Shown one piece after another: positions 1,157 through 61,152 of a stretch of 64,000 nt of DNA. The notes beneath the pieces are model-generated. The model searched no databases. It saw nothing but the letters and a program-made list of their open reading frames with translations, and had not been told where the DNA came from. The position numbers and the translations under genes were made by a program. The stretch's first letter is position 1; every line of letters begins with the position of its first letter. This DNA comes from Rufibacter roseolus (lineage in GTDB: Bacteria > Bacteroidota > Bacteroidia > Cytophagales > Hymenobacteraceae): NCBI RefSeq assembly GCF_017916365.1, contig NZ_JAFMSU010000003.1, positions 310,001-374,000 on the forward strand. Direction: 5' to 3'.

Positions 1157-1188
1157 TTTCAGGGCTGTTTATGTAAAAGCAGGGGCAA
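1157..1188. repeat. intergenic palindrome family copy
   Basis: Core reads agggctgttt-atgt-aaaagcagggg. It fits the framework GGGC-xx-TTTT/AAAA-xx-GCCC shared by about 35 copies in this window. It sits upstream of the lipoprotein/SCO1 pair. Confidence 0.6.
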
Positions 1189-1433
1189 TCCCCTGTGGTT
1201 GCCCTTGATGTTGGCGAGCAAAGTTTAGGTTGTTGGCGATAACACCAACAACAGCAGAAAATTGCAAGGGCAATCTCCGCTGGCGCGAGCCGCTGGCTCG
1301 TGTCCGCACGCATTCCTCAACATTGCCTTGCTGAAGAGGAAAAGGGGCTCTGCAATACATGTGGACACGAGCCAGCGGCTTGCGCCAGCGCAGTTACTTT
1401 ATTCAATAAGGGCAACCACAAGGGATTGTCCCT
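1181..1433. repeat. nested inverted repeats, about 250 bp, non-coding
   Basis: The outer arms at 1181-1206 and 1408-1433 are reverse complements with about 24 of 26 matches. Their motif is GGCAACCACAAGGGATTG-like and recurs near 14730. Inner arms at 1279-1309 and 1361-1390 match at about 29 of 31 positions and centre on CACGAGCCAGCGG. Between them lies a GTTGTTGG-type palindrome (1228-1252). Short open frames across this stretch are by-products of the repeats. I see no gene between 1084 and 1583. Confidence 0.7.
1228..1252. repeat. GTTGTTGG-type palindrome, copy 1 of 3
   Basis: An imperfect hairpin with arms TTGTTGG/CCAACAA and a GATAA-like centre. Related copies lie at 60107-60133 and 60231-60257. 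Confidence 0.65.
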
Positions 1434-1503
1434 ACATGTTCAAAAAATATCAGGTATCATGAGAGACAAAGCGGTGCCTGTCCTCTACAAAAAACAGGCA
1501 CTT

Positions 1504-1540
1504 GGTTTTGGGCCTGTTTTCACTAAATGAGCGCTGAAAC
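1504..1540. repeat. intergenic palindrome family copy, one arm decayed
   Basis: The left arm GGTTTTGGGCCTGTTTT is canonical and the right end keeps GAAAC at the expected distance, but the GCCC block is degraded. Confidence 0.5.
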
Positions 1541-1583
1541 AGAAAGATCACAAATCACACTTATATAAAACAAACTTATATAA

Positions 1584-1622
1584 AACAAAGAGCGGCTGCC
1601 TGGTGGGCAGCCGCTCTTTGTT
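1584..1622 (-). terminator. Rho-independent terminator of the 1636-2628 gene
   Basis: A perfect 17-bp stem (1584-1600 with 1606-1622) and 5-base loop. On the minus strand it is followed by a TTTTATAT tract and lies 14 bases past the stop codon of the disordered-protein gene. Confidence 0.85.
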
Positions 1623-1635
1623 CAGTGGTTTCTAA

Positions 1636-2628
1636 TTACCAGCTGAAGTCTTCGCGGGAAGGGGGTTGCGTTCCCTGGCCTCTCACGTGGCCGCTGCTTG
1701 GGTCGTAGCGGCGGTCCTGGCCTTCTTCTGAGCGGTAGTCGCGGTCGTTACCCCAGCTCAGGGAGCCGGCCATGTTGCCGTAGTTCTCGCTTCTGCCACC
1801 CTCGCCTTGTTGGTTGTGGTGTTCCCGGTGCGGTCTGTTGTAGTCAAAGTTAGCGCCGCCCTCGGCCTGGGTTCTGCGGTCAAAGCCGCTGCTCAATTGG
1901 CCCAGCTGCCGGCCGCGCTCATACTCGCCCCGGTTGTAGTGGGATTGTGAATCGTCATAGATCTCGTAGCGGCTGTCATCGCCTCGGCGGGAGATATCAT
2001 TCGTCCCGATGTCTCTCACACCGCCTCTTGAGCCGGCCCGGTCTGAGGGTTCCCAGCCTCTGGTGTTGTCTGCGCCGCGGCTACCCGGACGGCCGGAGCC
2101 ATCGTACTGCTCGCGCTCGCCGGGGGCAAAGCTGTTGTGGTCGCGGTAGGCGCCGTAAACCTGGCGGTTTACGTGGCGGTCTTCTTCGCGGCCGTGGCCA
2201 CTGCTCCAGCGGGAACCGTCTCCTGAATTCTGGTTATGCGAGCCGCCTCTGGAAGACCCGAAGCCCTGGGCTCCGCCGTAGCTGCCCATGTTTCCGAAGT
2301 TGCGGGTGGAGTGTTCCAGACCGTTGTTGTCTTCGTGAGCGCCCATGTTATCAAAGCGCTCTCCGCGGCGGTTGGGGTCCCGGCCATAGTCACGGGGCAG
2401 CTCGTGGTCTCTTTCCCGGCGGCGGTCCTCATTGGAGCCCTGGTACTGGTTGCTGCGGTAATCATTGCTGATATCGCGGTCATTGAAGTTGTTCCGGCGG
2501 TCCAGGCGGTCGTAGTCCCGGTCGCGGTCATTGTCCAGGCGGTAAGATCCGCGGTACTGGTCTTCATCGGCGCGCCGATTATCTGAACGGTGATGACCAC
2601 GGTCATCTGGTCTATGGTTTCTGTTCAT
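1636..2628 (-). CDS. low-complexity, intrinsically disordered Arg/Asp/Gly/Asn/Ser-rich protein
   Basis: 330 residues from the ATG at 2628 (MNRNHRPDD...); an upstream in-frame ATG at 2652 is less likely because it lies next to the repeat-derived leader. Composition is dominated by R, D, G, N, S, Y and H, with RDYD, RDRD and RGS-type runs and almost no hydrophobic residues. There is no signal peptide or membrane segment, so it is probably cytoplasmic. Its own terminator (1584-1622) supports it as a real transcription unit. Such proteins may be stress- or condensate-related, but nothing in the sequence proves a function. Codon usage is high in GC like its neighbours. Confidence 0.7.
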   Translation of the reverse strand: MNRNHRPDDRGHHRSDNRRADEDQYRGSYRLDNDRDRDYDRLDRRNNFNDRDISNDYRSNQYQGSNEDRRRERDHELPRDYGRDPNRRGERFDNMGAHEDNNGLEHSTRNFGNMGSYGGAQGFGSSRGGSHNQNSGDGSRWSSGHGREEDRHVNRQVYGAYRDHNSFAPGEREQYDGSGRPGSRGADNTRGWEPSDRAGSRGGVRDIGTNDISRRGDDSRYEIYDDSQSHYNRGEYERGRQLGQLSSGFDRRTQAEGGANFDYNRPHREHHNQQGEGGRSENYGNMAGSLSWGNDRDYRSEEGQDRRYDPSSGHVRGQGTQPPSREDFSW

Positions 2629-2675
2629 GGTGTTAGACTTTTGGTGTAACAAACAGCTTATGTAAACGGCAAGAA

Positions 2676-2730
2676 AGGCGATCCGGTTTTAGGCCCGTTT
2701 TCAGAAAGCGGGCTTAAAACCGGGTCGCCT
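2676..2730. repeat. intergenic palindrome family copy, long stem
   Basis: 22-base arms (2676-2697 and 2709-2730) match at 20 positions, with the mismatches able to form G-U pairs. The loop is 11 bases. It lies between two minus-strand genes and may terminate the 2742-3008 gene. Confidence 0.8.
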
Positions 2731-2741
2731 CCAGTTCCGCG

Positions 2742-3008
2742 CTATTTGGTGCGCAGGTTGTTCGCGTTGCTGCCGTCCAGCTCAGTGGTGTCTTCCTCGT
2801 CCTCGGCGGCCACGTTCCCCTCAGAGAAGCGGCCTTCGGGCTCATGGTCCAGAAAGTCTGCCTCAATGGCCTGCAGGCGGCTGCCGCCCAGGTCTGGCTT
2901 GGCGGTCTCATCATCCTCCGTCTTGCTTCCTTTTACCGGAACGGGGTTTTCATCTGGCAAGCGTTTGCTCTCGTCAGAATTGGTGATGTTGTCGTTTTGG
3001 ATAGGCAT
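2742..3008 (-). CDS. small acidic hypothetical protein
   Basis: 88 residues, strongly acidic (many D and E), hydrophilic, without signal peptide or recognised domain. It starts MPIQNDNITNSDESKRLP. It is flanked on both sides by palindrome copies (2676-2730 and 3102-3146), which usually mark gene boundaries in this window. I do not recognise a family. It could be a small disordered stress protein like its downstream neighbour. Confidence 0.6.
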   Translation of the reverse strand: MPIQNDNITNSDESKRLPDENPVPVKGSKTEDDETAKPDLGGSRLQAIEADFLDHEPEGRFSEGNVAAEDEEDTTELDGSNANNLRTK

Positions 3009-3101
3009 AGGTTGGGTCTGTAAATGAAAGCAGCCACTGCGGCTACCTCTATTTTATTTGTACGCTCCCAACTGAAAATGTTTGGTACCAAATCATGAAG
3101 A

Positions 3102-3146
3102 AGCCCGTTTTGAGGCTGTTTTACAGAAAACAACCCAAAACGGGCC
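3102..3146. repeat. intergenic palindrome family copy
   Basis: GCCCGTTTTGAGGCTGTTTT pairs imperfectly with AAAACAACCCAAAACGGGC across an ACAG centre. It lies just past the stop of the zinc-ribbon gene. Confidence 0.75.
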
Positions 3147-3168
3147 TCTTTTAAATAGCTGACTTTCT

Positions 3169-3801: not shown

Positions 3802-4010
3802 GTGATGGATCCTGATGCTTATTTACCCAAAGATACAAAAAGCATCCGTACCCACTTAGCCTGCTCATTGGCAACAACATTCTGGCTGACTTCTTTCTTA
3901 AGTTCTTTTTAACAGAAAGAGGCCGCAGCAAAACCCTTCATGCCTCCCTTTGACCTTTGGCAGATGTCCAATACAAAGAGGAGCCTTCCTAGCCAGCAGT
4001 AACAAGGGAA

Positions 4011-4047
4011 GTTTTGGACCTGTTTTTTGAAAATCGCCGCAAAAACA
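4011..4047. repeat. intergenic palindrome family copy, weak
   Basis: Reads GTTTTGGACCTGTTTT, centre TTGA, then AAATCGCCGCAAAAAC. Framework ends are kept and pairing is poor. Confidence 0.5.
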
Positions 4048-4410: not shown

Positions 4411-4414
4411 GTGT

Positions 4415-11310: not shown

Positions 11311-11364
11311 AAGAAGCCCGCTTTACGCCTCTTTTCTTCAAAAGAGGCGTAAAGCGGGCTTCTT
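11311..11364. terminator. perfect 25-bp palindromic hairpin, terminator-like
   Basis: Arms 11311-11335 and 11340-11364 are exact reverse complements with a 4-base CTTC loop. It is a palindrome-family copy with fully restored pairing. It follows the PorP/SprF stop by 21 bases. Confidence 0.9.
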
Positions 11365-11793
11365 CATTTTACTGCCTTTTGCCTAAAACCAGACTTAAAA
11401 CCCAGCCGGTAAGGAAGGATTTATAAGTGGCCAAAAGGTAGTCACCAACCAAAGGCTTCCCTGTTTCCATGCCTTAAGGACTTTAGCTTTAAGGACTTTA
11501 GCTTTCAAATTCTTCTCCGCACTTTAACATGGGTGCAATCATCTGACTTCCGGGATTGGATTCAGGGACTATACTTTTCATACATCAGTTTTACCCAGGA
11601 GGCTTTCTCCACCTGTCAATAATTGTACTTTAAAAACTTTATCGCTTAAATAATCTAATAAGCGGCTGTTTACGGCATTTCTGCTAAAACATGGTTTTCA
11701 CTTCTCCGTAAAATCAACCAAAGACCAAAGTAAGACATTACTAAGATTATCCAACTCAAAACATACTCCACTTACCTTCTAATTTCACAACCC
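11365..11793. other. non-coding gap upstream of the 11794 gene
   Basis: No gene seen. It contains a direct repeat of the 14-base TAAGGACTTTAGCT (about 11474-11502) and an AT-rich stretch near 11640-11760 that probably holds the promoter of the next gene. Confidence 0.6.
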
Positions 11794-12674: not shown

Positions 12675-12865
12675 TGAGAGAATGACTGAAGGAGTGCATG
12701 AGAGAATTGGGTGGGTACTTTTGATCCCCTAAGAGAAGATCTGATGATGACTTCCTGGCATTACGGCTCACCTACTAAGCTATTTATTTCGTTAATAATC
12801 AGCACCGGGATTCATGCCCATTTTTACGAAAGGAAGGTCAAACCATGAGGTGGCCTTCCTTTTGC

Positions 12866-12904
12866 TTTAAAGCCCGTTTATAAAAAAGCAGGCTCTAAAC
12901 AGGC
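12866..12904. repeat. intergenic palindrome family copy
   Basis: TTTAAAGCCCGTTTAT, then AAAAAAGCAGGCTCTAAAC. The framework is conserved with partial pairing, upstream of the HD-domain gene. Confidence 0.65.
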
Positions 12905-14620: not shown

Positions 14621-14805
14621 CGTCCCCCTTTGAAGGGGGTAGGGGGATGACAAGGCAGTATGAAGAACCAAGTTGCTTTACTAAAGGGCGAAGGCTTCAA
14701 TGTAGCTCTTCAATCAAGGACAACCGCAAGGGATTGCCCCTACGCTTCGGGAATGCGTGTGATCAGCACGAGCAATCATCCCCCTCCCCCCTTCAAAGGG
14801 GGACG
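14621..14805. repeat. nested inverted repeats, non-coding
   Basis: 30-base arms at 14621-14650 and 14776-14805 match at 29 positions (CCCCCTTTGAAGGGGG-type). Inside, CACGCATTCC (14612-14621) is inverted as GGAATGCGTG (14750-14759). A GGACAACCGCAAGGGATTGC motif at 14719-14738 is the same family as the arms near 1181 and 1408. A single eroded arm of the first type recurs near 56255. The small open frame here is not a gene. Confidence 0.75.
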
Positions 14806-14818: not shown

Positions 14819-14868
14819 AAAAGGAGCTTCGGGGCTGTTTTCTAAAAAACAGCCCCGAAGCTCCTTTT
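14819..14868. terminator. perfect 23-bp palindromic hairpin (palindrome family)
   Basis: Arms 14819-14841 and 14846-14868 are exact complements with a 4-base CTAA loop. It lies between the ABC ATPase repeats and the convergent YciI gene, so it could terminate in both directions. Confidence 0.9.
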
Positions 14869-15430: not shown

Positions 15431-15471
15431 CTCGTTTCGGGGCTGTTTTGCAGAAAATGGCTCTTAAGCAG
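15431..15471. repeat. intergenic palindrome family copy
   Basis: CTCGTTTCGGGGCTGTTTT, centre GCAG, then AAAATGGCTCTTAAGCAG. It is the only recognisable feature in the 450-base gap between YciI and the TonB receptor besides a repeated TCCTGCTCGTTT word (about 15424 and 15496). Confidence 0.6.
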
Positions 15472-15633: not shown

Positions 15634-18138
15634 ATGGCCAACGTAAAACAGCTTCTTCTCCAAACCATTATTGGCTTGCTGGCTATGCTGGCAGTCCTTG
15701 GCCCCTCTCCTATGAAGGCGGCACCTGCAAGGGCGTCCATTTGGCAAACCAATGGGGTTCCGGTTTCAGGGACGGTGGTGAGTGCCGTAACCAAGGCGCC
15801 CGTGGATTTTGCCACGGTAGCGCTGCAGGAAAAAAGCGGTACACTCATCACCGGGGTACCCTGCGACCAGAACGGCAAATTCACCTTCCCCAAAGTGGCC
15901 CCTGGCGACTATAACCTGGTTATCAGTTTCATCGGGTACAGAACCAAAATACATCCTATTCAGGTCTCGGGCGGAACGGCGCCCATTCAATTAGGGCAAA
16001 TTTTACTGGATACTGACAGCAAGGCCCTGGAGGAAGTGGTGGTGACCGGCGAGAAAAACCTCATCCAGGAAACCGATGACGGCATGGTGTACAACGCCGA
16101 GAACGACATCACCAACATCGGGGGCACCGCCGCCGACGTACTTAAAAAGGTGCCTTCGCTGTCTATGGACATGGATGGCAACGTGGAGATGCGGGGCAGT
16201 AACAAAATCAAGATCCTGATCAACGGCAAACCCTCTACCATGCTCGCCGATAACCTGGCCGAGGCCCTGCAGCAGATTCCGGCGGATATGATCAAAAGCG
16301 TGGAGGTGATTACCAGCCCCTCGGCGAAGTATGACGCGGAGGGCACCGCCGGAGTGGTAAACATCATCACCAAGCAAAGCTCTATTGAAGGCATGACCGG
16401 CCAGGTGACTGCCACCGCCGGAAACCGCAGCAACAACCTGAACACCAACCTGAACGTGCGCAAAAAGAAACTGGGCCTGCGGGCCAGCGTGGGCGGCAAC
16501 TTCAATGACCGACTGGGTGATTCTGAGTCTGATCAGGTGTATTTCCGGGAGGAGAACCTCATCCAGACGCCTACCAAGCTTATCCAGCAGAGCAGCGCCT
16601 TTGAGAACAACGGCCGCTCGTTCTTCTCGCAACTGGGCGCCGACTATGACTTTAACGAGCACAACAACCTTAGTGCCAGCATCAGGGTGAACCGCTCCCG
16701 GAACCTGAGTGACCGCACGCTCTCCACCGCGCAGTTCACCCCATCGGGTGAAGAGCAGACAGAGAATTACCGGTTCCGGGACATTGACAACCTTAACCGC
16801 AACAACGGCGTGGAGACCAACCTGCACTACAAAAAGCGGTTCAAGCGGAAAGACCAGGAACTGGATGTAATGGCCATCTTCAACAGCAACGCCAGCTACA
16901 GCGACTACAGCCTGACGGAAGAAAACCGCACCGCCCAAATTACTCGCCTGGAGCAGAGCGATAACCACAGCACCGGCCAGGAGTTCACATTCCAGGCCGA
17001 TTACGCGCATCCGTTTGAGAAACTGGGGCGGCTGGAAGGCGGCATAAGGGCGGTACTCCGCAACTCGGGCAGTGACTATAATTTCCTTTTCTCCCGCGCG
17101 GCTGATGCACCTTTGACCGAGGACCCGGCACGTTCCAACCTGTTCAGCTACGATCAGGATGTATACTCGTCTTACCTCTCCTATACCTTAAGATGGAAGA
17201 ACCTGTACACCCTGCGCGTGGGCGGCCGCTATGAATACACTTCGGTGACGGGAGAGTTCGCCACGAACAACATAGAAACCAACCTGGACCGGCCTTTCCA
17301 CAACTTCATGCCCAACCTGATGCTGATGCGGCGCTTCAGCAAAGACCAGCGCCTGCGCCTGAGCTACGCCACCCGCATCCAGCGGCCGGGCATGAACCAG
17401 TTGAACCCTTACCGCAACGAAAGCAACCAACTCAACATCCGGTACGGCAATCCCAACCTGGAAGCCGAGATCACCCATAACACCGAGCTGAACTACAGCT
17501 GGCTCCTGAAAACCACCAGCTTCAATGCCTCCATGTACTGGCGGCAGACAAACAATGACATCAACCAGTACCAGTTTCCCATTCGGGAAAACAACGACAC
17601 CCTGAACACCACCTTCGCCAACCTGGGCAAGAACGCCACCTATGGTACCAGCCTTAACGCCACTACCCGTTTCAAAGAAAAGGGCCAGATTGGCGTGAAC
17701 CTGAACCTGTTCTACAATGACCTCACCAGCTTTGTGGGCCGCAACCTGATCCAACGCTCGGGCTTTATGTACAACCTGGGCGGCAACGCCTCTTACCGCT
17801 TCGTGAACGACTTGAGTGTGCAAACGGCCGGTTCCTTCAACTCGCCCCGGCTTTCCCTGCAGAGCCGCAGCACCTACAATTACTCCTACAGCCTGGGCCT
17901 GCGTAAAGAGTTCTGGAAGCGGAAAGGTGGCGTGAGCCTTAACGTAGAGAACTTCCTGTTCAGCAACAACTCCATCCGGACTACGGTCACCAACACCAAC
18001 TCCAGCAATTTCAACCTCAATAACAACTACAACCGCGTAGTGCGGGTGAGTTTTAACTACCGTTTCGGGAAAATGGAGTTTAAACGGGATAAGGCTTTGG
18101 AGAAGTTTACCGGAGGGGAAGGAAAGAAGAAAGGATAA
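15634..18138 (+). CDS. TonB-dependent receptor, outer-membrane beta-barrel family (OMP_b-brl_3 type)
   Basis: 834 residues. Signal peptide about 1-30, then a carboxypeptidase-regulatory-like domain (about 45-125; VSGTVVSAVTKAPVDFATV ... IGYRTKIHPIQVSGG), a plug domain (about 140-240; LEEVVVTGE, LINGKPS, IKSVEVITSPSAKYDAEGTAGVVNIITK) and a large barrel ending in RVSFNYRFGKMEF plus a charged tail. These receptors import metals, peptides or glycans with TonB energy, or act as outer-membrane proteins of unknown ligand. No SusD-like partner is next to it. The ATG at 15634 starts a sensible signal sequence. Confidence 0.92.
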   Translation: MANVKQLLLQTIIGLLAMLAVLGPSPMKAAPARASIWQTNGVPVSGTVVSAVTKAPVDFATVALQEKSGTLITGVPCDQNGKFTFPKVAPGDYNLVISFIGYRTKIHPIQVSGGTAPIQLGQILLDTDSKALEEVVVTGEKNLIQETDDGMVYNAENDITNIGGTAADVLKKVPSLSMDMDGNVEMRGSNKIKILINGKPSTMLADNLAEALQQIPADMIKSVEVITSPSAKYDAEGTAGVVNIITKQSSIEGMTGQVTATAGNRSNNLNTNLNVRKKKLGLRASVGGNFNDRLGDSESDQVYFREENLIQTPTKLIQQSSAFENNGRSFFSQLGADYDFNEHNNLSASIRVNRSRNLSDRTLSTAQFTPSGEEQTENYRFRDIDNLNRNNGVETNLHYKKRFKRKDQELDVMAIFNSNASYSDYSLTEENRTAQITRLEQSDNHSTGQEFTFQADYAHPFEKLGRLEGGIRAVLRNSGSDYNFLFSRAADAPLTEDPARSNLFSYDQDVYSSYLSYTLRWKNLYTLRVGGRYEYTSVTGEFATNNIETNLDRPFHNFMPNLMLMRRFSKDQRLRLSYATRIQRPGMNQLNPYRNESNQLNIRYGNPNLEAEITHNTELNYSWLLKTTSFNASMYWRQTNNDINQYQFPIRENNDTLNTTFANLGKNATYGTSLNATTRFKEKGQIGVNLNLFYNDLTSFVGRNLIQRSGFMYNLGGNASYRFVNDLSVQTAGSFNSPRLSLQSRSTYNYSYSLGLRKEFWKRKGGVSLNVENFLFSNNSIRTTVTNTNSSNFNLNNNYNRVVRVSFNYRFGKMEFKRDKALEKFTGGEGKKKG

Positions 18139-19451: not shown

Positions 19452-19470
19452 GCACCGCATTCTTACTTGT

Positions 19471-19508
19471 CGTTTAGGGCCTTTTTTAGTAAAGCAGGGC
19501 TTAAACGG
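19471..19508. repeat. intergenic palindrome family copy
   Basis: CGTTTAGGGCCTTTTTT, centre AGT, then AAAGCAGGGCTTAAACG. Good framework and partly paired arms; 20 bases past the DUF1456 stop. Confidence 0.75.
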
Positions 19509-21599: not shown

Positions 21600-21965
21600 T
21601 TTCAGGTCATTGACCTTTCCTTATTACCCGATTTATTTATACCTTCCTGTAGAAGAACAATTTACCACTGCCAGACAAATGACAACTGGTGCCCATGCAG
21701 CGGATATGGGCTGTATTTCAGGCCTGTTTTCCTCAAATCTGCCCGGAAACGCACTGCTTCTATGACGCTTCTGGCAAGTACTGTTTCTGCATTCTCATTC
21801 CCCACAACGGCGGCTATCACTTTCCCGCAGCTGTCGGTAATCTCTCAGGCTCACCCAGAACACCCCGGTGGGGAGTATTGCATCGGCCACAAGACAGGCG
21901 GGCTCTGCGCTGCTCCCGGATTACTGATTCTAAGTTTTCTCACCATCCTCAAAAACCAGAAACTT
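21600..21965 (+). repeat. duplicated leader, copy 1 (upstream of NTF2-like gene)
   Basis: Resembles 25640-26007 in the same order: a TTACCCGATTTATTTATA-like word, a palindrome copy about 250 bases before the ATG, an ACACCCCGG(C/T)GGGGAGTA hairpin word, then CTCTGCGC..CTCCCGGAT about 70 bases before the start. No gene is seen in 21419-21965. Confidence 0.7.
21712..21751. repeat. intergenic palindrome family copy, syntenic with 25751-25792
   Basis: GTATTTCAGGCCTGTTTT, centre CCTC, then AAATCTGCCCGGAAACG. It lies at the same offset from the downstream ATG as the copy in the duplicated leader. Confidence 0.65.
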
Positions 21966-22469: not shown

Positions 22470-22588
22470 TAGAACGGCATTTCTGCCCAACTCTCGATGC
22501 TTCCCTGGTTCAGGCCCGGTTTACGGACTGACCCTGCCACTAATGAACATTCAACTTTAATTGCTTTCCTGTATCAGCAGAGTTATCC

Positions 22589-22626
22589 GTTTGAACGTTG
22601 CTTTTAGAAAATAAGGCTAAAACCGT
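22589..22626. repeat. intergenic palindrome family copy, weak
   Basis: CGTTTGAACGTTGCTTTT, AG, AAAATAAGGCTAAAACCG. Ends are conserved and inner blocks eroded. Confidence 0.45.
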
Positions 22627-26999: not shown

Positions 27000-27099
27000 A
27001 ACGAGAGATTATTTTAGGATGGAAAGCACAAAGCAATGACGTCTCCGGAATCCAAGAGAAACACAGGCCTTGGGAACCGAAGCCAGATCCACAAAGCGG

Positions 27100-27133
27100 C
27101 TTTTCTGCTGATTTGGTAAAAACAGCAGAAAAA
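27100..27133. repeat. hairpin, possible palindrome family copy
   Basis: TTTTCTGCTG (27101-27110) pairs with CAGCAGAAAA (27123-27132) across a 12-base loop. It lies between the divergent lipoprotein and signal peptidase genes. Confidence 0.6.
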
Positions 27134-27276
27134 TCAGTCTTTGGCTGCTATTCCCCAAAGGGATTCTGTTTAATCGGCCCTCTGCAAAGCTAGGATTTAG
27201 GTAAGAAGGAACACAATAAAACCAAGGAAACATAGTTTTATTCTATATTCTGGTTTCCAGGTAACCACTTTGCTCT

Positions 27277-30438: not shown

Positions 30439-32154
30439 TTAGATATTCTGCTTTTTCATTTCACTTACGGCATGATCCACGGCGCGGGCGGTGAGGGCCA
30501 TGTAGGTGAGCGATGGGTTTTGGGTAGAGGTGGAAGTCATGCAGGCGCCATCGGTTACGTAGACGTTGGGACAGGCATGCAGTTGGTTGTATCTGTTCAG
30601 CAACGAGGTCTTAGGGTCGTGGCCCATGCGTACGCCGCCCATCTCGTGGATGTCTAGTCCCGGGGCCTGGTGCGAATCGGTTTTCTTGATGTTGGTGAAG
30701 CCGGCTTTGGTGAACATCTCCTCCATCTGGGCATGGTAATCGGCTACCATTTTGTTGTCGTTGGCATCGTAGTCCAGGTTGATGTTCAGGAGCGGGATGC
30801 CCCAGTCGTCTTTCCGGGTCTTGCTCAGGCTCAACTGGCTTTCGGCTTTGGGAATGGTTTCGCCCATCATGTGAGAGCCTACTTTCCAGATGCCCCAGGA
30901 AGGGTTTAGAAGCTGTTTTTTCAAATCTACCCCGAAACCAGACGTATCTGATTCCTGCCCACGGTCGGCCCGGAAACCGGCGGCATATCCGCGCAGGAAG
31001 TCGGTTTCTTGCTTGTGCAGGTTCCGGAAGCGCGGGATGTAGCCGCCGCCCGCAGGGTTACGGCCATCGGTGGCGTACTCTTGGAAGCCTTCGTACTCGG
31101 CGGTGATCCTGGCGCGGTAGTTATGGAAGGCCACGTACTTGCCCAGCAACCCGCTGTCGTTGCCCAGCCCGTTGGGGAACCGATCTGAGGTGGAGTTCAA
31201 CAGTATCTGGTTTGTGCTAAACGCCGAGGCATTCACGAAAATCACCGGTGCGTAATACTCGGTGGTTTCCTTCGTCTGGGCATTGATCACACGCACGCCG
31301 GTGGCTTTACCCGCCTTATCGTCATAAATTACCTCCTGCACTACTGAGTGCGGCAGCAGGGTCATGAGCCCCGTGCGCTCGGCCCACGGAATAGTGGAGG
31401 AATTGCTGCTGAAGTACCCCCCAAAAGGACAGCCGCGCTGGCATATCACCCGGTTCATGCACTGCGCCCGGCCCTGGTCCAGATGGATCTGGTTGGGCTT
31501 GGACAGATGCGCACAGCGGGCACTGATCACGTGGCGGTTGCCGTAATGGCTTTTGAGTTGCTTTTTGAAGTAGTCTTCCACGCTGTTCAGCGGATAGGCG
31601 GGCAGAAACTCGCCGTCGGGCAGTTCCGCCAGGCCATCGTTATTGCCGGAGATACCCGCGAATTTCTCCACGTAGCTGTACCACGGCGCCAGGTCTTTGT
31701 AGCGGATAGGCCAGTCCACGGCATAACCGTCGCGGGCGGGACCTTCAAAATCAAGGTCGCTCCAGCGCTGCGTCTGCCGGGCCCACAACAGTGACTTGCC
31801 GCCCACCTGCTGGCCCCTGATCCAGTCAAAGGGCTTTTCCTGCACGTATGGCTGCTCCGTGTCTTTCACGAAGAAGTGCATGGCGTCTTCGCGGAACGCG
31901 TAGCAGCGGCTCACCACCGGGTTCTTTTCCCTCATTTCAGCGGTCAGCTCCCCCCGGTGCTCAAATTCGTAGGGCATCATGTTGGTGGTGGGGTAATCCT
32001 TGATGTGCTTCACATCGCGGCCGCGCTCCAGCACCAGCGTTTTCAGGCCCTTGCCGGTGAATTCCTTCGCCGCCCATCCGCCGCTCATCCCAGACCCGAT
32101 CACGATGGCGTCAAAGGTGCGCTGCTTTACACTGTCTACATTCAGATTGGCCAT
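30439..32154 (-). CDS. GMC family oxidoreductase (FAD-dependent, membrane-complex type)
   Basis: 571 residues, no obvious signal peptide. Rossmann FAD motif VIGSGMSGG (about 18-26) and LVLERGRD. Body has RGQQVGGKSLLWARQTQRW, a QRGCPFGGYFSSN segment with Cys, and the C-terminal catalytic region HEMGGVRMGHDP followed by GACMTSTSTQNPSLTYMALTARA, where His and Asn act in alcohol or sugar oxidation. It pairs with the subunit-3-like gene 2 bp upstream, as in gluconate 2-dehydrogenase-type complexes; the cytochrome subunit is not adjacent. It likely acts in the periplasm or at the inner membrane; the sugar substrate is unknown. Confidence 0.93.
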   Translation of the reverse strand: MANLNVDSVKQRTFDAIVIGSGMSGGWAAKEFTGKGLKTLVLERGRDVKHIKDYPTTNMMPYEFEHRGELTAEMREKNPVVSRCYAFREDAMHFFVKDTEQPYVQEKPFDWIRGQQVGGKSLLWARQTQRWSDLDFEGPARDGYAVDWPIRYKDLAPWYSYVEKFAGISGNNDGLAELPDGEFLPAYPLNSVEDYFKKQLKSHYGNRHVISARCAHLSKPNQIHLDQGRAQCMNRVICQRGCPFGGYFSSNSSTIPWAERTGLMTLLPHSVVQEVIYDDKAGKATGVRVINAQTKETTEYYAPVIFVNASAFSTNQILLNSTSDRFPNGLGNDSGLLGKYVAFHNYRARITAEYEGFQEYATDGRNPAGGGYIPRFRNLHKQETDFLRGYAAGFRADRGQESDTSGFGVDLKKQLLNPSWGIWKVGSHMMGETIPKAESQLSLSKTRKDDWGIPLLNINLDYDANDNKMVADYHAQMEEMFTKAGFTNIKKTDSHQAPGLDIHEMGGVRMGHDPKTSLLNRYNQLHACPNVYVTDGACMTSTSTQNPSLTYMALTARAVDHAVSEMKKQNI

Positions 32155-33703: not shown

Positions 33704-33740
33704 ATCGAATTGGGCCCGTTTTACAGAAAACAGGCTTGAA
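33704..33740. repeat. intergenic palindrome family copy at a gene-remnant junction
   Basis: AATTGGGCCCGTTTT, ACAG, AAAACAGGCTTGAAG. Its right arm runs directly into the glycosidase remnant at 33733. Confidence 0.7.
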
Positions 33741-33831
33741 GTGGACCGTGGAGCCGGGCACGTTCAAGATCATGGTGGGCAGCTCCTCGGAAGACATTAG
33801 GGAAAGCAAAGAAGTCACCATTCCTGAGTAG
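33733..33831 (+). pseudogene. remnant of a GH3 beta-glucosidase, C-terminal Fn3-like end
   Basis: An open frame of 32 codons ending in TAG reads WTVEPGTFKIMVGSSSEDI followed by RESKEVTI. This is the last strand pair of the fibronectin-III-like domain that ends glycoside hydrolase family 3 beta-glucosidases. No start or catalytic domain is upstream, so it is the 3' scar of a deleted gene. The palindrome copy marks the deletion edge. Confidence 0.75.
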
Positions 33832-34641: not shown

Positions 34642-34676
34642 AAAAAGGAGGCACCAGTTCTGGCACCTCCTTTTTT
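34642..34676 (+). terminator. Rho-independent terminator of DoxX gene
   Basis: AAAAAGGAGG (34642-34651) pairs with CCTCCTTTTT (34666-34675), with an inner CCA/TGG stem around a 2x2 mismatch; a T-run follows. Confidence 0.85.
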
Positions 34677-35029: not shown

Positions 35030-35056
35030 ACTAAAAATTAAGGTAAGTCACTAAGG

Positions 35057-35095
35057 TATTTTACGGCTGTTTTCACAAAAACGAGGCGAAAAAGG
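35057..35095. repeat. intergenic palindrome family copy
   Basis: TATTTTACGGCTGTTTT, CAC, AAAAACGAGGCGAAAAAG, between two minus-strand genes. Confidence 0.6.
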
Positions 35096-47012: not shown

Positions 47013-47060
47013 GCCGTTTAAGGGTTGTTTAAAAGAAATCAGCCCTTAAACGGCTTTTCT
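47013..47060 (+). terminator. 12-bp hairpin terminator (palindrome family)
   Basis: GCCGTTTAAGGG (47013-47024) pairs with CCCTTAAACGGC (47043-47054), followed by TTTTCTCTTTT. It has GTTTAAGGG and CCCTTAAAC ends like the family and lies 57 bases after the preceding stop. Confidence 0.8.
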
Positions 47061-48197: not shown

Positions 48198-48202
48198 CCG
48201 CG

Positions 48203-48240
48203 CCTTGGGGCTTTTCCCAGAAAAACAGGGCATAAACTGT
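48203..48240. repeat. intergenic palindrome family copy
   Basis: CCTTGGGGCTTTT, CCCAG, AAAAACAGGGCATAAAC; 6 bases past the LEA-like gene stop. Confidence 0.6.
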
Positions 48241-50980: not shown

Positions 50981-51000
50981 GCCAGCAACCCAAACTAAAG

Positions 51001-51034
51001 ACCGCAAGGGCTGCCTGGTAGCGGCTCTTGCGGT
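51001..51034 (+). terminator. terminator-like hairpin after the SusC-like gene
   Basis: ACCGCAAG (51001-51008) pairs with CTTGCGGT (51027-51034), with GGCTGCC/GGTAGCGG inner pairs, then TTCTAGTTTT. Confidence 0.6.
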
Positions 51035-51038
51035 TTCT

Positions 51039-51788: not shown

Positions 51789-52895
51789 TCAGTTGACTAC
51801 TAGAAAGTCAGCGATAACCTTTTCCTGACCATTCACGATCACCGACACGCGGTGCTCTCCCGGATAGTACCTGCGCGTGGTGATGAACCTGAAGCTCTGC
51901 CTGCGGGTAACGGTGGTTTCCTCAATTGGGGCAAATTCGCGCTCGCTGATCTTGAACACCTTCCGGGCCAGGGAGTTTTTTGCTTTTTTATAATACACGC
52001 CGTATTCCAGTCGTACTTTCTGGGGCGTTTCAGAGGTGTTTTTCAGGGAAAAGGCGAAAAGCAGATCCTGCCCCAGCGCCACCTGGGGGGTTAACACTTT
52101 GAAGCCGGAGACCTCCAGATGGGCCGCTCCGTTAAACCCGAAATACTGGAGCACCTCGGTATGGCCTTGCTTGAGCAACGTGCGGCAGCCGTGTTTCACT
52201 ACCCAATCGGATTCTTTGGTTTGGCCTTTCCATTGGGCCAGCAGTTCCAGCACCAGCTCGGGGTTATCCTTGGAAATGTCGTTGAGGTTATTGGCCACGC
52301 TCCGGCGCACGAACTCAGAAGCATCTGCTTTGAGGTTCTCCAGGATGGGCAAAATGGGCGACGGATCGCGTTTGAGGAAGGGCAGCGCCATGGCCCAAGG
52401 CAACCGGGGACGACAACCTTCGGAGGAAAACCGCCTGACCGCGTGGTGATCGTGCGTGGACCAGGCTAGCATCTGCGCCATCATACGCTCGGGATATTTC
52501 AGAAGGAACGGACGAACTGCGAACTCACAGCTAATGAACTGCGTGATCTGCTCCATGGCCCAGACGGAAGTTTCCAGGTCCTCCAGGCCGTACAGTTCCA
52601 CATAATCTGGGAAGAACATGAATTCCACGTGCTGCACAGGAAACTGACTATCGCGTAGCCGTTGGATGGTTTGCAGAATCACCCCTACCGCCTCGGGAAA
52701 ATTAGAGGGCAGAAAATGGTGCAGCGTGCGGGCGGTGTGCCGCATGCGCTCCTTCAGTTCTTTCGCTTCCCAACCCTCCGCGAAAATCAACTGCCTGAAC
52801 TGCTCCTGATCAAACTGAGGCAAGATAGTTTTCAACACCTGACCGAACTGGTCATAGAACTGGGGCGAATAGACGTCTTTCAGGAGCGCGGGCAT
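51789..52895 (-). CDS. AlkC-type DNA alkylation repair protein with C-terminal Ig-like domain
   Basis: 368 residues. N-terminal HEAT-like repeats (about 1-250) as in AlkC/AlkD: FMFFPDYVELYGLEDLETSVWAMEQITQFISCEFAVRPFLLKYPERMM and ASEFVRRSVANNLNDISKDNPELVLELLAQWKG. Residues about 265-368 form a beta sandwich like the Ig-like domain of AlkC enzymes. AlkC is a DNA glycosylase for N3-alkyl adducts. It lies between esterase and response regulator genes; the regulator directly follows it. Confidence 0.9.
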   Translation of the reverse strand: MPALLKDVYSPQFYDQFGQVLKTILPQFDQEQFRQLIFAEGWEAKELKERMRHTARTLHHFLPSNFPEAVGVILQTIQRLRDSQFPVQHVEFMFFPDYVELYGLEDLETSVWAMEQITQFISCEFAVRPFLLKYPERMMAQMLAWSTHDHHAVRRFSSEGCRPRLPWAMALPFLKRDPSPILPILENLKADASEFVRRSVANNLNDISKDNPELVLELLAQWKGQTKESDWVVKHGCRTLLKQGHTEVLQYFGFNGAAHLEVSGFKVLTPQVALGQDLLFAFSLKNTSETPQKVRLEYGVYYKKAKNSLARKVFKISEREFAPIEETTVTRRQSFRFITTRRYYPGEHRVSVIVNGQEKVIADFLVVN

Positions 52896-56664: not shown

Positions 56665-56680
56665 CCATAAAGAACCAATT

Positions 56681-59600
56681 ATGAGTACCACCATCAAAGC
56701 ACCTGTTCAGTCAATCGTGCAAGCGCCTATTCTGTTCACTAAACGGCAGTTCATCCCGTTGCTGGCAGGCATGGGAACTATAGCAATCGGCTTTCTGCTT
56801 ATGGCCACTGATTCTGCCCCGCAGGGCTACGGCTTCCAGGGGCTCACGCTGGGACCGCTGCTGGTGGTATTAGGTTTGGTGCTCCCGATTTGGGGCATCT
56901 TCCGGGAAAACAGCCATAAAACGGTTGTGGAAGTCTCCCCCGCTTGGCGCACTTTCCGGAGGTGGAATACGGTGTTGGGTTGGGTTTCTGCCTTGGTGGC
57001 CTTAGGAGTGTACGTGCGGACGCTGGAGCCTACCACCAGTTTCTGGGATACCGGCGAGTTCATTGCGGCGGCCTACAAGTTGCAGGTACCGCATCCGCCA
57101 GGGGCGCCGCTGTTTCTGCTTATCGGAAGGCTGTTTACGCTGTTGAGCTTCGGGGAGGTGACGCAGGTGGCCTGGTGGATGAACTTTCTCTCGGCGGTGA
57201 GCAGCGCGGCCACGGTGCTGTTCCTGTTCTGGAGCATTTCGCTGCTGGCCCAACGGCTGTTGCCTTTATCACCTGATGGCCCCTCCCCCGCCCAACGAGT
57301 GCTGCTACTGGGTAGCGGTGCCGTAGGCGCCCTGGCCTTTGCATTCACCGATTCTTTCTGGTTCAGCGCCGTGGAGGCCGAGGTCTACGGCATGTCCTCG
57401 TTCTTCACGGCTATTGTGGTGTGGGCAGCTCTCAAGTGGCAGGCCGAGGCCAACTCCCCGGAGGCCGGTCGCTGGCTTTTGTTTCTGGCTTACCTGGTGG
57501 GGCTTTCCATTGGGGTGCATTTGCTCAACCTGGTGGCTTTGCCGGCTATCGCGCTGCTGGTGTATTTCCAGAAGTACAAGCCTACCAAGTGGGGCGTTTT
57601 GCTTGCGTTGATGATGGGTGTGGCATTGGTGCTGGTGGTGATGGAAGGCGTGATTACGGGCCTGCCCTCGGTGGCCGGAGCCATGGAAGTGTTCTTCGTG
57701 AACAGCATCGGGTTGCCGTACGGCGCGGGGGCCGTTATCTTTTTGCTGGGACTCACGACGGCCATCTGGTACGGACTCCGCTGGGCCAGGAAAACGGACC
57801 GGGTGCTGTGGCACCACGCGCTGGTGGCTTTAGTGTTGGTGCTGGTGGGTTACTCGTCTTACCTCATGGTGCCCATCCGGAGTGGCTACAACCCGCCCAT
57901 TGACGAGAATAACCCCGAGAACCTGCTTTTCTTTGTGAGTTACCTCAAGCGTGAGCAGTACGGTAGCCGGCCGTTGCTGTACGGTCCGCAGTTCAACGCC
58001 GAGGCCCAGAGCTTTGAGAAAGGCAGTCCCATTTACGCGCCCCAAAACGGCAAATATGCGGTAGTGGATTACAAATATGAGGTGGCCTACGCCGATAAAG
58101 ACAAAACCCTGCTCCCGCGCCTTTACTCAGATACGCCGCTGCACCTGCGGGCCTACCAGTACTGGGAAAACGTGCAACAGGGCCAGAAACCAAGCTTCGG
58201 GCAGAACCTGGGTTTCCTGTGGAACTACCAGTTGAACCACATGTACTGGCGGTACTTCGGGTGGAACTTTGTGGGACGGGAGAGCGAGGTGCAGGGCGCC
58301 GGCGTGCTGTGGCCCTGGGAAAAGAAATCCGAGGCGCCCTCGCCTATCGCCCAGAGCAAAGCCCGCAACCAGTTCTACATGCTGCCGCTGCTCCTGGGTG
58401 TTTTAGGGCTGATTTTCCAATTCCGGCGCCAAAACAAGGATGGCTGGACAGTCCTGCTGCTGTTCCTTTTCACGGGCGTGGCCATTGTGGTGTACCTGAA
58501 CCAACCACCGGTAGAACCCCGCGAGCGCGACTACACCTTCGCCGGTTCTTACTACGCTTTCAGTATCTGGCTGGGCCTGGGCGTACTGGCCTTAGGTGAC
58601 TTCCTGCGCCGCCTGGTAAAAGCCGAGCTCCCAGTTGCAATTATGGCCACCGTTCTCGCGTTGTCTGCTCCCTTGGTGCTGCTGGCCCAGGGCTGGGATG
58701 ACCACGACCGCTCAGACCGGTACCACGCCCTAGACTCGGCCAAGAACCTGCTGAGCTCCGTGGCCCCCAACGCCATCCTGTTCACCAACGGCGACAATGA
58801 CACTTTCCCGCTGTGGTACGCCCAGGAAGTTGAAGGCTACAGAACCGATGTGCGCGTGCTAGTCATGACCTACCTAAACACTGATTGGTATATTGAACAG
58901 GCCCGTCGTCAAGTAAATGCCTCCGCCCCGCTGCCCGGCACCTTGCCGCTAACTCAGTACACCTTCAGCACGAATAACTACCTGCCTTACGTGCCCAACC
59001 CCAGCGTGCAGGACAGCGGCATGGACCTGAACCAGTACCTCCAACTGCTCAAACAGAACCACCCCGCGCTACAGGTTCAGACACAGGACGGCCGCACCTT
59101 GAGCGCCTTGCCCACCAAACGACTGCAATTAACCGTAGACAGAAATGCGGTCCTGCAAAACGGCACCATCTCCCCGGAGCGCGTCAGCCAAGTAGCTTCT
59201 ACCATGTCATGGGAATTGCAAACCTCGGCCCTGGAGAAAAAGCACCTGTTCATGCTGGACGTGATCGCCACCAACAACTGGCAACGACCTATCTACTTCT
59301 CCAGCACCGGGGGTGAGTCCTCGGAACTTGGTTTACAACCGTTTCTCCAGTTGGAAGGTCAGGCCCTGCGCCTGGTGCCGGCCCGCAACCCAGATGCCCA
59401 GGCAGAGGCCTACGTAGACCGCCAGCGGACCCAGCAGAGTTTACTGGAAAAGTTCCGCTACACCGGCCTCACCAATCCAGACCAGCCATATGAAGAGAAT
59501 TTCACGACGCAGATCGTGCCCTTGTACCGTCATAACTTTGCAGAACTGGCCACGGCCCACCTGCAGGCCGGAGACATATCACAAGCTAGAAAGGTGTTGC

Positions 59601-59914: not shown

Positions 59915-60007
59915 GGATTTGAAGATTTGAAGATTTGAAGATTTGGAGATGTGAGGATTGGGAAATTTGGAAATATGATAATTTGGAAAGGGTAGATTCA
60001 GGTTACT

Positions 60008-60043
60008 CGTTTGAGCCCCGCTTTAGGAATTTTGGGCTCAAAG
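60008..60043. repeat. intergenic palindrome family copy
   Basis: CGTTTGAGCCCCGCTTT, AGGA, ATTTTGGGCTCAAAG; TTGAGCCC and GGGCTCAA pair exactly. Confidence 0.65.
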
Positions 60044-60106
60044 CCAACTTAGTGTGCCACCCACTGAGTGTGCCATTTGAAACACCCTCAAAGCCCACCT
60101 CAGATG

Positions 60107-60133
60107 CCGTTGTTGGTGTTATCACCAACAACC
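60107..60133. repeat. GTTGTTGG-type palindrome, copy 2 of 3
   Basis: GTTGTTGGTG (60109-60118) pairs with CACCAACAAC (60123-60132) with a TTAT loop: a perfect 10-bp stem. Confidence 0.75.
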
Positions 60134-60140
60134 ACAACAG

Positions 60141-60179
60141 CGTTTCTAGTGCCTTTTACAGAAAATTAGCTATAAACGG
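60141..60179. repeat. intergenic palindrome family copy, weak
   Basis: CGTTTCTAGTGCCTTTT, ACAG, AAAATTAGCTATAAACG; ends and centre fit, GGGC/GCCC blocks lost. Confidence 0.5.
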
Positions 60180-60230
60180 GTATTGAATAAAACAGGTGAA
60201 TGCGGTAAGAATACTATGGTGGGAAATGGA

Positions 60231-60257
60231 GCTGTTGGTGATAAAACCAACAACGGC
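60231..60257. repeat. GTTGTTGG-type palindrome, copy 3 of 3
   Basis: Inverted relative to copy 2 (about 25 of 28 positions match its reverse complement). Confidence 0.7.
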
Positions 60258-60371
60258 ATTGAACTGAGAAGTCCTCTTAACACCTACAAGGGCAGCAAAG
60301 AACCTTCCCTTTCCAAATTATCATATTTCCTAATCTCCACATCTTTAAAATTACAAATCTCCAAAAACTCC

Positions 60372-61013
60372 CTAATAAGGAATCTGCATGGCTTGTAACA
60401 GTCGTTCTTCCAGTTCGGGGAGTTCGCAGAAGCCGCGGGAGATGAGGCGGGGGCCCATGGGGTGCTCCAGGTAAACGCTGGGCAGGGTACTGACGCCCAT
60501 TTCCTCTACCATTTTAAACTCGTCCTGGGTTTGCTGGTAGATTTCATCGGTCTCGAAGACGGCCAGGAACAGGTTCTCCGGTATCCCGAACGGACGCAGC
60601 ACTTCTACTAGCACCTGGGTATCAGTGATGTCCCAGCCATCGGCGTAGAAGGCCGAGTGAAGGGCGCGGAGGACTTCCAGGGTGAGCCCGGGCCTCAGGT
60701 GACGCACAGTTAAGAGGGCGCGGCAAGCGGGTTCAGTATCATAAACGGCCTCTTTCTGCAGGAAGAAGCTGTAGTCAAAGGGCAGGTTTGATTTCCCCTG
60801 GGCCCGGTGCCAGCTCACGGCCAGTTTGTCTTTCTCCGCCGAGGTCAACGGATCCTGGACGTACGGATGGAGCCCTCCTACCATCACCTGCACCGAGAGC
60901 CGGCCAAACCAAAGGGCCCTTAATCTTCTGATCACTGGCGTGAACCCGTAACACCAGGCGCACATAGGATCAGTGACGTACAGCAGGAGTGGATTTTCGG
61001 GGAGCATGGACAT
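60372..61013 (-). CDS. DsbA family oxidoreductase (2-hydroxychromene isomerase/FrnE-like)
   Basis: 213 residues, no signal peptide, so cytoplasmic. CAWCYGF (CxxC at about residues 18-21) follows a thioredoxin strand (LLYVTDPM), and the cis-Pro segment is STLPSVYLEHP. The insertion and size fit the DsbA-like group that also includes FrnE and HCCA isomerase. It may handle thiols under stress. Substrate unknown. Confidence 0.88.
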   Translation of the reverse strand: MSMLPENPLLLYVTDPMCAWCYGFTPVIRRLRALWFGRLSVQVMVGGLHPYVQDPLTSAEKDKLAVSWHRAQGKSNLPFDYSFFLQKEAVYDTEPACRALLTVRHLRPGLTLEVLRALHSAFYADGWDITDTQVLVEVLRPFGIPENLFLAVFETDEIYQQTQDEFKMVEEMGVSTLPSVYLEHPMGPRLISRGFCELPELEERLLQAMQIPY

Positions 61014-61111
61014 AGGTATTCTTCCTTGGTTTCTCTCTGTTTACCGTTAACCTAGCCTCAAAGGTTTGTCCTGACCTTGATTTTAGACCTGCGGCAATCC
61101 GTATAAGTGTC

Positions 61112-61152
61112 CGGTATTTAGGGGTAGATTTTAGTAAAACAGCCTCTAACCG
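61112..61152. repeat. intergenic palindrome family copy
   Basis: CGGTATTTAGGGGTAGATTTT, AGT, AAAACAGCCTCTAACCG, next to the SDR stop (61153). Confidence 0.65.

What the first reader, a model, noticed from the sequence alone, without database searches (positions are those of the whole stretch)
1157..61152. An abundant, uncharacterised 36-40 bp intergenic palindrome family, about 35 copies in 64 kb
Nearly every intergenic gap carries a copy with the same framework: GTTT, two bases, GGGC, two bases, TTTT, a 3-6 base centre, AAAA, two bases, GCCC, two bases, AAAC. Copies: 1157, 1504, 2676, 3102, 4011, 4457, 11311, 12866, 14819, 15431, 19471, 21712, 22433, 22589, 22681, 23871, 25535, 25751, 26469, 27100, 28481, 30369, 33704, 34677, 35057, 36043, 42274, 43756, 46136, 47013, 48203, 51039, 52911, 54751, 60008, 60141, 61112. 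They lie after, before and between genes of all orientations and, with one exception, outside coding sequence. Arms vary but end words and centre persist, which terminators alone would not demand. I know of no named family like this; a non-autonomous mobile or REP-like element, or a transcript-end or nucleoid-binding motif, are options.
Basis: seen in the sequence. Interest (0 to 1): 0.75.

Follow-up and report, generated by a model that had tools for sequence, protein, structure and literature searches.

The report
Boundary palindrome between Rufibacter genes
Bacteria of the genus Rufibacter carry a 40-letter mirror-image DNA sign between a large share of their neighbouring genes; it is kept in place by selection while the DNA around it changes, is rare in freshly acquired DNA and in the related genera looked at, and may mark the ends of transcription units for a protein nobody has identified.

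Summary
The unit is a 40-bp dyad of four CTGTTTT-like boxes at 11-bp pitch around four free bases. Density is 320-500 per Mb in six Rufibacter genomes, against 2 hits in 1.49 Mb of other genera and 0-3 exact cores in each of 394 other Bacteroidota genomes (87 here). It is not a REP/RAYT or visibly mobile element: 77 of 84 occupied gaps are also occupied in R. hautae, where neutral decay would leave about 2% of copies. Occupied gaps hold about one copy whatever their length; tandem gaps under 50 bp hold almost none; low-GC acquired DNA has few. In this genome and R. hautae most copies show almost no arm covariation, favouring DNA recognition; a hairpin class (12-17% here and in R. hautae, 37-40% in R. 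ruber and G006) is partly merged with terminators. Best reading: a genus-specific, protein-read boundary site between transcription units. Protein and effect on transcription are inferred.

The parts
1154..1193 (.). dyad copy, 22.9 bits
   Evidence: matrix scan
1503..1542 (.). dyad copy, 39.2 bits
   Evidence: matrix scan, framework 0 mismatches
2684..2722 (.). dyad copy, 40.5 bits, 3-base centre
3105..3144 (.). dyad copy, 38.2 bits
4009..4048 (.). dyad copy, 31.8 bits
4136..4176 (.). weak dyad copy, 18.7 bits
11318..11357 (.). dyad copy, 33.8 bits, perfect arms, hairpin also in R. hautae
11364..11403 (.). dyad copy, 20.4 bits, counterpart in R. hautae
12862..12902 (.). dyad copy, 30.8 bits, counterpart in R. 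hautae
14824..14863 (.). dyad copy, 34.0 bits, perfect arms, convergent gap, counterpart in R. hautae
15432..15471 (.). dyad copy, 38.8 bits, counterpart in R. hautae with diverged flanks
18048..18087 (.). weak in-gene match, 18.2 bits, possibly chance
19470..19508 (.). dyad copy, 37.8 bits, 3-base centre, counterpart in R. hautae also 3-base
21713..21752 (.). dyad copy, 36.4 bits
22431..22470 (.). dyad copy, 33.1 bits, first of three in one gap
22587..22625 (.). dyad copy, 28.6 bits
22681..22720 (.). dyad copy, 26.2 bits
23868..23907 (.). dyad copy, 32.3 bits
25535..25574 (.). dyad copy, 34.7 bits
25752..25791 (.). dyad copy, 32.1 bits
26468..26507 (.). dyad copy, 23.1 bits, counterpart in R. 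hautae
27097..27136 (.). dyad copy, 23.2 bits
28481..28520 (.). dyad copy, 25.2 bits
30373..30411 (.). dyad copy, 25.4 bits, perfect arms, convergent gap; no counterpart in the R. hautae alignment
30902..30940 (.). in-gene dyad copy, 31.9 bits (GMC oxidoreductase gene), present in R. hautae
33705..33744 (.). dyad copy, 31.3 bits
34675..34714 (.). dyad copy, 27.2 bits, directly after an ordinary hairpin at 34642-34675
35056..35095 (.). dyad copy, 33.0 bits
36045..36084 (.). dyad copy, 30.8 bits
40615..40653 (.). in-gene dyad copy, 22.7 bits
42273..42312 (.). dyad copy, 27.9 bits
43758..43797 (.). dyad copy, 31.6 bits
43833..43871 (.). dyad copy, 23.4 bits
46136..46174 (.). dyad copy, 31.7 bits, 3-base centre
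47014..47053 (.). dyad copy, 38.3 bits, 15 of 18 arm positions match
48200..48239 (.). weak dyad copy, 20.3 bits
51038..51077 (.). dyad copy, 32.4 bits, directly after a hairpin at 50999-51036
52025..52064 (.). in-gene dyad copy, 25.7 bits
52910..52949 (.). dyad copy, 25.1 bits
54748..54787 (.). dyad copy, 23.8 bits, at the end of a called 116-aa ORF
56885..56924 (.). in-gene dyad copy, 31.2 bits
58398..58437 (.). in-gene dyad copy, 29.4 bits
60140..60179 (.). dyad copy, 26.1 bits
61114..61153 (.). dyad copy, 30.6 bits

Best explanation
The element is a genus-specific, vertically inherited double-stranded DNA site: CYGTTTT-NRGS-CYGTTTT-N4 followed by the mirror image, that is four CTGTTTT-like boxes, one per 11 bp, two forward and two reversed. 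SHOWN by computation: it is real, sharply bounded, restricted to Rufibacter among the genomes searched, conserved at orthologous gaps under purifying selection, used as a whole dyad in the two genomes with a strong motif, written in species dialects, about one per occupied intergenic gap, and rare in low-GC acquired DNA. INFERRED: an unidentified dimeric or tetrameric DNA-binding protein reads it on one face of the helix and marks the boundary between neighbouring transcription units, stopping or insulating transcription (and the supercoiling it drives) from either side. Near stop codons a class of copies has been built into intrinsic terminator hairpins, which adds RNA-level termination to the same sign.
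For: Column conservation is uneven: two TTT blocks per half-site at 80-97%, other columns 38-76%, edges sharp. In R. ruber (G001) boxes 1 and 2 have the identical consensus CTGTTTT. Half-sites >10 bits outside full dyads are few in R. ruber (30, shuffled 18, against 366 in dyads) and G006 (44, shuffled 40, against 347). Own genome versus R. hautae: both occupied 77, own only 7, hautae only 6, neither 49 of 139 gaps; 9 of 13 discordant gaps hold a 16-20-bit remnant; at the 65% identity measured outside the motif, 2% of simulated copies stay above 20 bits. Sixteen genomes at one locus: 234 both, 189 neither, 74 discordant non-independent pairwise comparisons. Mean copies per gap 0.50-1.33 in every length class from 150 bp up. 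Tandem gaps <50 bp 4/172; convergent 100-199 bp 46/59; divergent 100-199 bp 5/31; divergent >=200 bp 80/137. Occupancy of gaps >=100 bp by GC of the flanking genes: <0.44 4/32, 0.44-0.48 22/65, 0.48-0.52 51/105, >=0.52 445/654. Dialects: R. ruber and G006 differ at column 8 (p 3e-32), 13 (2e-15) and 9 (3e-13), counting half-sites as independent; the close pair G000/G004 differs only at column 7 (p 2e-3).
Against: No binding protein was identified and there are no expression data. 70 of 195 gaps >=150 bp in this genome have no copy and 27 of 208 copies lie in called ORFs. In the window's own genome half-sites outside dyads exceed chance (252 against 146 at >10 bits). Ordinary terminators are hardly less frequent than in other genera (13-20% against 19-23% of ends), so the sign has not replaced them. 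Arm covariation exists: overall 10.88 against 10.44 (z 4.2) here, 14.43 against 13.78 (z 5.6) in R. ruber; window copies 71.1% paired against 66.3% shuffled, 0 of 500 reaching; gap 34166 78.9% against 73.6%, 2 of 500. The hairpin class is 67 of 179 non-genic copies in R. ruber and 67 of 167 in G006. In one convergent gap the palindrome is kept in species where the motif score is lost. Promoter-like TAnnTTTG was not clearly commoner in motif-bearing tandem gaps.
Confidence: 0.47

Rival explanations
1. The whole family is a set of bidirectional intrinsic transcription terminators whose RNA hairpin is the functional part; copies with mismatched arms are worn terminators.
For: Arm identity >=16/18 is commoner at 3' contexts (111/584) than in divergent gaps (8/109), p=0.002, four genomes pooled. 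In tandem gaps arm identity >=15/18 is found in 69 of 199 copies within 50 bp of the stop and 41 of 229 further away. One convergent gap keeps a hairpin in 13 aligned species: 88% of pair cells form, 19 of 26 pairs change on both sides, covariation 0.496 against at most 0.155 slid; in G002, G012 and G015 the stem stays there although the motif score falls below 18 bits. Hairpin copies are followed by more T in three of four genomes (3.07, 3.38, 2.80 against 2.06, 2.12, 2.23; R. ruber 2.02 against 2.03). The hairpin class reaches 37-40% in R. ruber and G006.
Against: With the 17 copies at >=15/18 of 208 set aside, arm identity equals independence in this genome (10.39 against 10.35) and likewise in R. 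hautae (10.39 against 10.34 without 23 of 199). The tip of the stem is A/U-rich and sequence-fixed, which a terminator does not need. No raised T count after the other copies. 109 copies lie in divergent gaps of the four genomes.
Confidence: 0.25
2. A DNA-uptake (self-recognition) signal kept by transformation drive, like the neisserial DUS: many copies, dialects, terminator use.
For: Copy number, species dialects, scarcity in foreign islands and terminator co-option resemble DUS as described in passages of PMC2397512 and PMC3630211.
Against: Single halves are near chance in two genomes and the fixed dyad is what is enriched, whereas a passage of PMC2397512 says transformation depends only on a single DUS. 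No even spacing: spacing CV is above the null in R. ruber and G006 and not significantly below it in the other two.
Confidence: 0.1
3. A nucleoid or supercoiling site (gyrase- or NAP-like) that organises the chromosome rather than acting on transcription.
For: 11-bp phasing, dyad symmetry around four free bases, preference for gene ends and convergent gaps.
Against: Specificity of 12-23 bits per half-site and restriction to one genus are unlike a general topoisomerase site; not testable further here.
Confidence: 0.13
4. A REP/MITE-like mobile family that burst in the Rufibacter ancestor and has since been fixed.
For: Sudden genus-specific appearance in very many places is easiest to seed by dispersal; it may describe the origin.
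Against: No clear target-site duplications, no shared 8-base flanks among the 100 strongest printed copies of G006 and G001, no Y1 gene in G007, which has the motif, and Y1 genes in genera without it; uneven column conservation and kept positions are not neutral decay.
Confidence: 0.05

Closest known systems
REP / BIME elements with RAYT transposases (GTAG and CGTC super-families)
   Same: Short (20-40 bp) palindromic repeats in high copy outside genes (title and start of abstract of PMC3733652 in the listing); one passage says CGTC repeats also occur in Bacteroidetes
   Different: No GTAG/CGTC tag in the consensus, no RAYT link, no sign of recent dispersal, uneven base-specific constraint, conserved positions
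Neisserial DNA uptake sequences in inverted pairs
   Same: Many copies per genome, species dialects, inverted pairs acting as terminators (passages of PMC2397512 and PMC3630211)
   Different: Here a 40-bp four-box dyad with a rigid 4-base centre; single halves near chance in two genomes; about one per occupied gap
Intrinsic (rho-independent) bidirectional terminators
   Same: A class of copies near stops and in convergent gaps has perfect or extended stems
   Different: The other copies do not pair beyond what the consensus gives, are not followed by extra T, and occur in divergent gaps too
Dyad operators of tetrameric regulators, e.g. OxyR/LysR type with boxes about 10-11 bp apart (recalled, no call)
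   Same: Four phased boxes with dyad symmetry
   Different: Hundreds of sites per Mb between unrelated genes, not at a set of promoters

Membership tests
REP/RAYT | linked Y1 (PF01797) REP-associated transposase in genomes with the repeat | tested here: not met
   Y1_Tnp in 48 of 59 relatives including genera without the motif; none in G007, which has it
REP/RAYT | GTAG or CGTC tetranucleotide tag at one end | tested here: not met
   consensus ends CYGTTT/AAACRG and flank columns without information; judged on the consensus only
MITE / mobile repeat | target-site duplication | tested here: not met
   direct flank repeats of 2-9 bp in four genomes at three offsets are at chance save small excesses of 3-5 bp matches, the largest in G006 (3 bp 15 against 7.6; 4 bp 7 against 2.1)
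MITE / mobile repeat | presence/absence polymorphism with clean empty sites | tested here: inconclusive
   13 discordant of 139 gaps between two species, 9 of 13 with a sub-threshold remnant; empty sites were not read base by base, and the one pair compared in depth has 92.6% median protein identity
intrinsic terminator | RNA stem kept by compensatory change | tested here: inconclusive
   met for one convergent gap and a hairpin class; weak in a tandem gap; not for most copies of this genome and R. hautae
intrinsic terminator | T-run after the stem | tested here: inconclusive
   raised after hairpin copies in 3 of 4 genomes, background after the rest
DNA uptake sequence | single copies enriched and sufficient | tested here: inconclusive
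   half-sites >10 bits outside dyads 30 against 18 and 44 against 40 in G001 and G006, but 252 against 146 in G000, whose matrix is weak; sufficiency not testable
Rfam family | match above gathering score | tested here: not met
   0 matches in the window
protein-bound boundary site | a sequence-specific binding protein | not testable with these tools
   no candidate identified

The most novel reading that the evidence does not exclude
A whole genus has evolved a dedicated punctuation mark for its chromosome: one four-box protein-bound dyad per transcription-unit boundary, on the order of two thousand by extrapolation, read by a new DNA-binding protein whose specificity drifts between species and drags all sites with it. 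Native DNA carries the mark and newly acquired DNA mostly does not, so it could also serve as a self signal.
Probability: 0.3. Interest if true: 0.88.

Novelty: new variant of a known kind. Interest (0 to 1): 0.66.

Why it matters
I know of no bacterium that marks transcription-unit boundaries genome-wide with one dedicated sequence (general knowledge; the eight narrow library searches made here, listed none). Very many selected sites that are confined to one genus and shift together between species make a natural experiment on how a trans-acting DNA-binding protein and its sites co-evolve, and the gradient towards foreign islands shows how acquired DNA stands outside the system.

Tried and rejected
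RAYT/Y1 transposase link: rejected. Target-site duplications: nothing clear, with small excesses of 3-5 bp matches. G-U against A-C mismatch asymmetry by gene orientation as a test for RNA: no clear asymmetry. Even spacing expected of an uptake signal: not found. Hits in other genera (G022, G017, G026, G034, G035, G018): at E <= 0.05 one to five matches each, both strands of one palindrome counted. Displacement of ordinary terminators: none that is strong. A counterpart dyad in Pontibacter, Adhaeribacter, Hymenobacter, Spirosoma/Dyadobacter or other loci: none of comparable frequency, though those sets mix many species and the Adhaeribacter set is small (31 gaps). Multi-copy clusters as a pointer to an autoregulated gene: listed, not followed. 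A first framework pattern with the wrong spacing gave 0 matches and was corrected.

Cautions on counts. Intergenic and gap classes rest on my own simple codon-usage gene caller (from then on), not on an annotation. G000 and G004 regions are orthologous, so counts pooled over four genomes are not independent. Model R1 stopped at about 112 scored candidates per genome, so one search gives no true totals; other genera also list matches at E <= 10 there (up to 97), with best E-values mostly 0.01-1 against 1e-9 to 4e-7 in the genus. Of the 394 other genomes only three belong to the same family, all one genus. Genome-wide totals are extrapolations. The simulation used 86 source copies. Alignment A2 holds 13 of the 14 species printed for that gap (R. 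hautae left out because of an indel); A3 holds 10 of the 12 printed (G015, no copy, and G009, 14.8 bits, left out). Tallies used 20 bits, except 18 and lower cut-offs for display.

Full report
THE OBSERVATION. The window is positions 310001-374000 of contig C3 of a 5.5-Mb genome. Its signal-peptidase protein is 92% identical to that of Rufibacter hautae, whose contig coordinates match handle G004; G001 matches R. ruber, G012 Sabulibacter ruber and G011 R. sediminis in the same way. The plain framework gives 40 matches, at 37 places, against 0.38 by chance. In 450 kb around the window 208 copies exceed 20 bits against 0 in a shuffle. Rfam has no match in the window.

ANATOMY. The consensus is CYGTTTTRGGSCTGTTTT, a centre of four bases (three in 39 of 208 here), then the mirror image. 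Columns 1-7 and 12-18 share the consensus CTGTTTT in R. ruber, and with their mirror images they lie at an even 11-bp pitch. Information starts and stops sharply at the 40-bp edges. The TTT blocks are 80-97% conserved, the rest 38-76%. In R. ruber and G006 the motif is far stronger (22-23 bits per half-site) and the centre is four bases in 181/188 and 177/181 copies; in G009 and G015 it is weaker (12-13 bits). Half-sites outside full dyads are few in R. ruber (30, shuffled 18, against 366 in dyads) and G006 (44, shuffled 40, against 347), so there the dyad is the unit. In the window's own genome, where the matrix is weak, half-sites alone do show an excess (252 against 146), which I leave open.

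DISTRIBUTION. All 16 genus genomes reach the cap of the sequence model with best E-values of 8e-9 to 4e-7; the best values in other genera are 4e-6, 1e-4 and 5e-4 and mostly 0.01-1, and those best ones are single palindromes. The exact core CTGTTTT-N4-AAAACAG occurs 87 times in this genome and 0-3 times in each of 394 other Bacteroidota genomes, of which three are from the same family. 1.49 Mb of loci from other genera give 2 hits. Density in Rufibacter is 320-500 per Mb in the six genomes sampled, which would extrapolate to roughly 1,700-2,600 per genome.

SELECTION, NOT MOBILITY. Of 139 gaps between conserved neighbours in this genome and R. hautae, 77 hold a copy in both, 7 and 6 in one, 49 in neither. 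Variable motif columns and flanks have drifted (flanks about 48% identical in register, 65% when aligned) while the TTT columns 5, 6 and 16-18 are 87-97% identical, column 4 80%. Part of that identity follows from requiring a score in both genomes; the retention count is the safer figure. Under neutral drift at 65% identity 2% of copies would survive the threshold; 77 of 84 occupied gaps did. Over 16 genomes at a second locus the same gaps tend to be occupied or empty: 234 and 189 against 74 discordant comparisons. No clear target-site duplications and no Y1-transposase link were found. Species differ in their preferred bases at particular columns across their copies (column 8: p 3e-32 between R. 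ruber and G006), as expected if a trans-acting reader drifts; the close pair G000/R. hautae does not differ beyond column 7 (p 2e-3).

PLACEMENT. Mean copies per gap are 0.5-1.3 whatever the gap length, and counts are less dispersed than Poisson. Tandem gaps under 50 bp have almost none (4/172); convergent gaps of 100-199 bp have one in 46/59; divergent gaps of that size in 5/31, but divergent gaps of 200 bp or more in 80/137. In tandem gaps copies lie nearer the upstream stop by two or three to one. Occupancy falls with the GC content of the flanking genes: 445/654, 51/105, 22/65, 4/32. A 38-kb low-GC island of R. ruber with an integrase, McrBC-like and type I restriction genes has no copy above 20 bits. 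So foreign DNA mostly lacks the sign. Many ordinary gaps lack it too: 70 of 195 gaps of 150 bp or more in this genome.

DNA OR RNA? Arm-to-arm identity is barely above independence in this genome (10.88 against 10.45; z 4.2), and equals it once the 17 best-paired of 208 copies are set aside (10.39 against 10.35; R. hautae 10.39 against 10.34 without 23 of 199). These second figures are slightly biased, because the cut also lowers the expectation. A hairpin class exists: paired arms or extended pairing in 22 of 181 non-genic copies here, 29 of 166 in R. hautae, 67 of 179 in R. ruber and 67 of 167 in G006; in the last two the consensus alone gives 13-14 of 18. At least 16/18 matching arms are found in 111/584 copies at 3' contexts against 8/109 in divergent gaps; in tandem gaps at least 15/18 in 69/199 within 50 bp of the stop against 41/229 further off. 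In one convergent gap 13 species keep a stem with 88% of pair cells formed and 19 of 26 pairs showing two-sided changes; in three species the stem outlives the motif score there. In G006 four of 24 divergent copies have extended pairing, and weak covariation remains in other sets, so the split is not absolute. Ordinary terminators are about as frequent as in other genera.

INTERPRETATION. What is shown is a selected, genus-specific dyad, about one per occupied gap, mostly between genes and rarely in operon-like short gaps. That a protein reads it, and that it stops or insulates transcription, is inference; the dialects, the rigid 11-bp geometry and the copies without paired arms support a protein, and the placement supports a boundary role. 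After it I rank a pure terminator family, a nucleoid site, an uptake signal and a fixed mobile family, in that order.

LITERATURE. Eight searches of the held library listed nothing on this element, judged from titles and abstract starts. For comparison I saw passages of PMC3733652, PMC2397512, PMC2267715 and PMC3630211, and read no paper in full.

Noticed in passing
window 14624-14639 and 14787-14802: A second, smaller dyad, CCCCCT-N4-AGGGGG, two exact copies (0.34 expected with up to one mismatch, 3 of 100 shuffles reach 2); the same dyad occurs in 10 of 273 gaps in the 450 kb.
   Followed up: partly
G001:C77 about 17536-55739 (L209-L211): 38-kb low-GC (39%) island in the R. ruber handle with a phage-type integrase, McrBC-like and type I restriction-modification genes and no copy of the motif.
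   Followed up: partly
window 60103-60138 and 60225-60260: Two related hairpins built on TTGTTGGTG/CACCAACAA-like words about 120 bp apart, flanking the copy at 60140.
   Followed up: no
window 56885 and 58398: Two strong copies (about 30 bits) lie inside one 1077-aa ORF; whether they are under DNA-level constraint there is open.
   Followed up: no
Hymenobacter loci among L054-L106: Hymenobacter intergenic DNA shows its own modest dyads, GAGGT-N7 in 16 and AGGCCC-N12 in 12 of 401 gaps.
   Followed up: no
G000:C3:337277 and G000:C2:385830: Two signal peptidase I paralogs; the window's type (66% identity or more) was found in 9 of 16 genus genomes, the other type in all 16.
   Followed up: no
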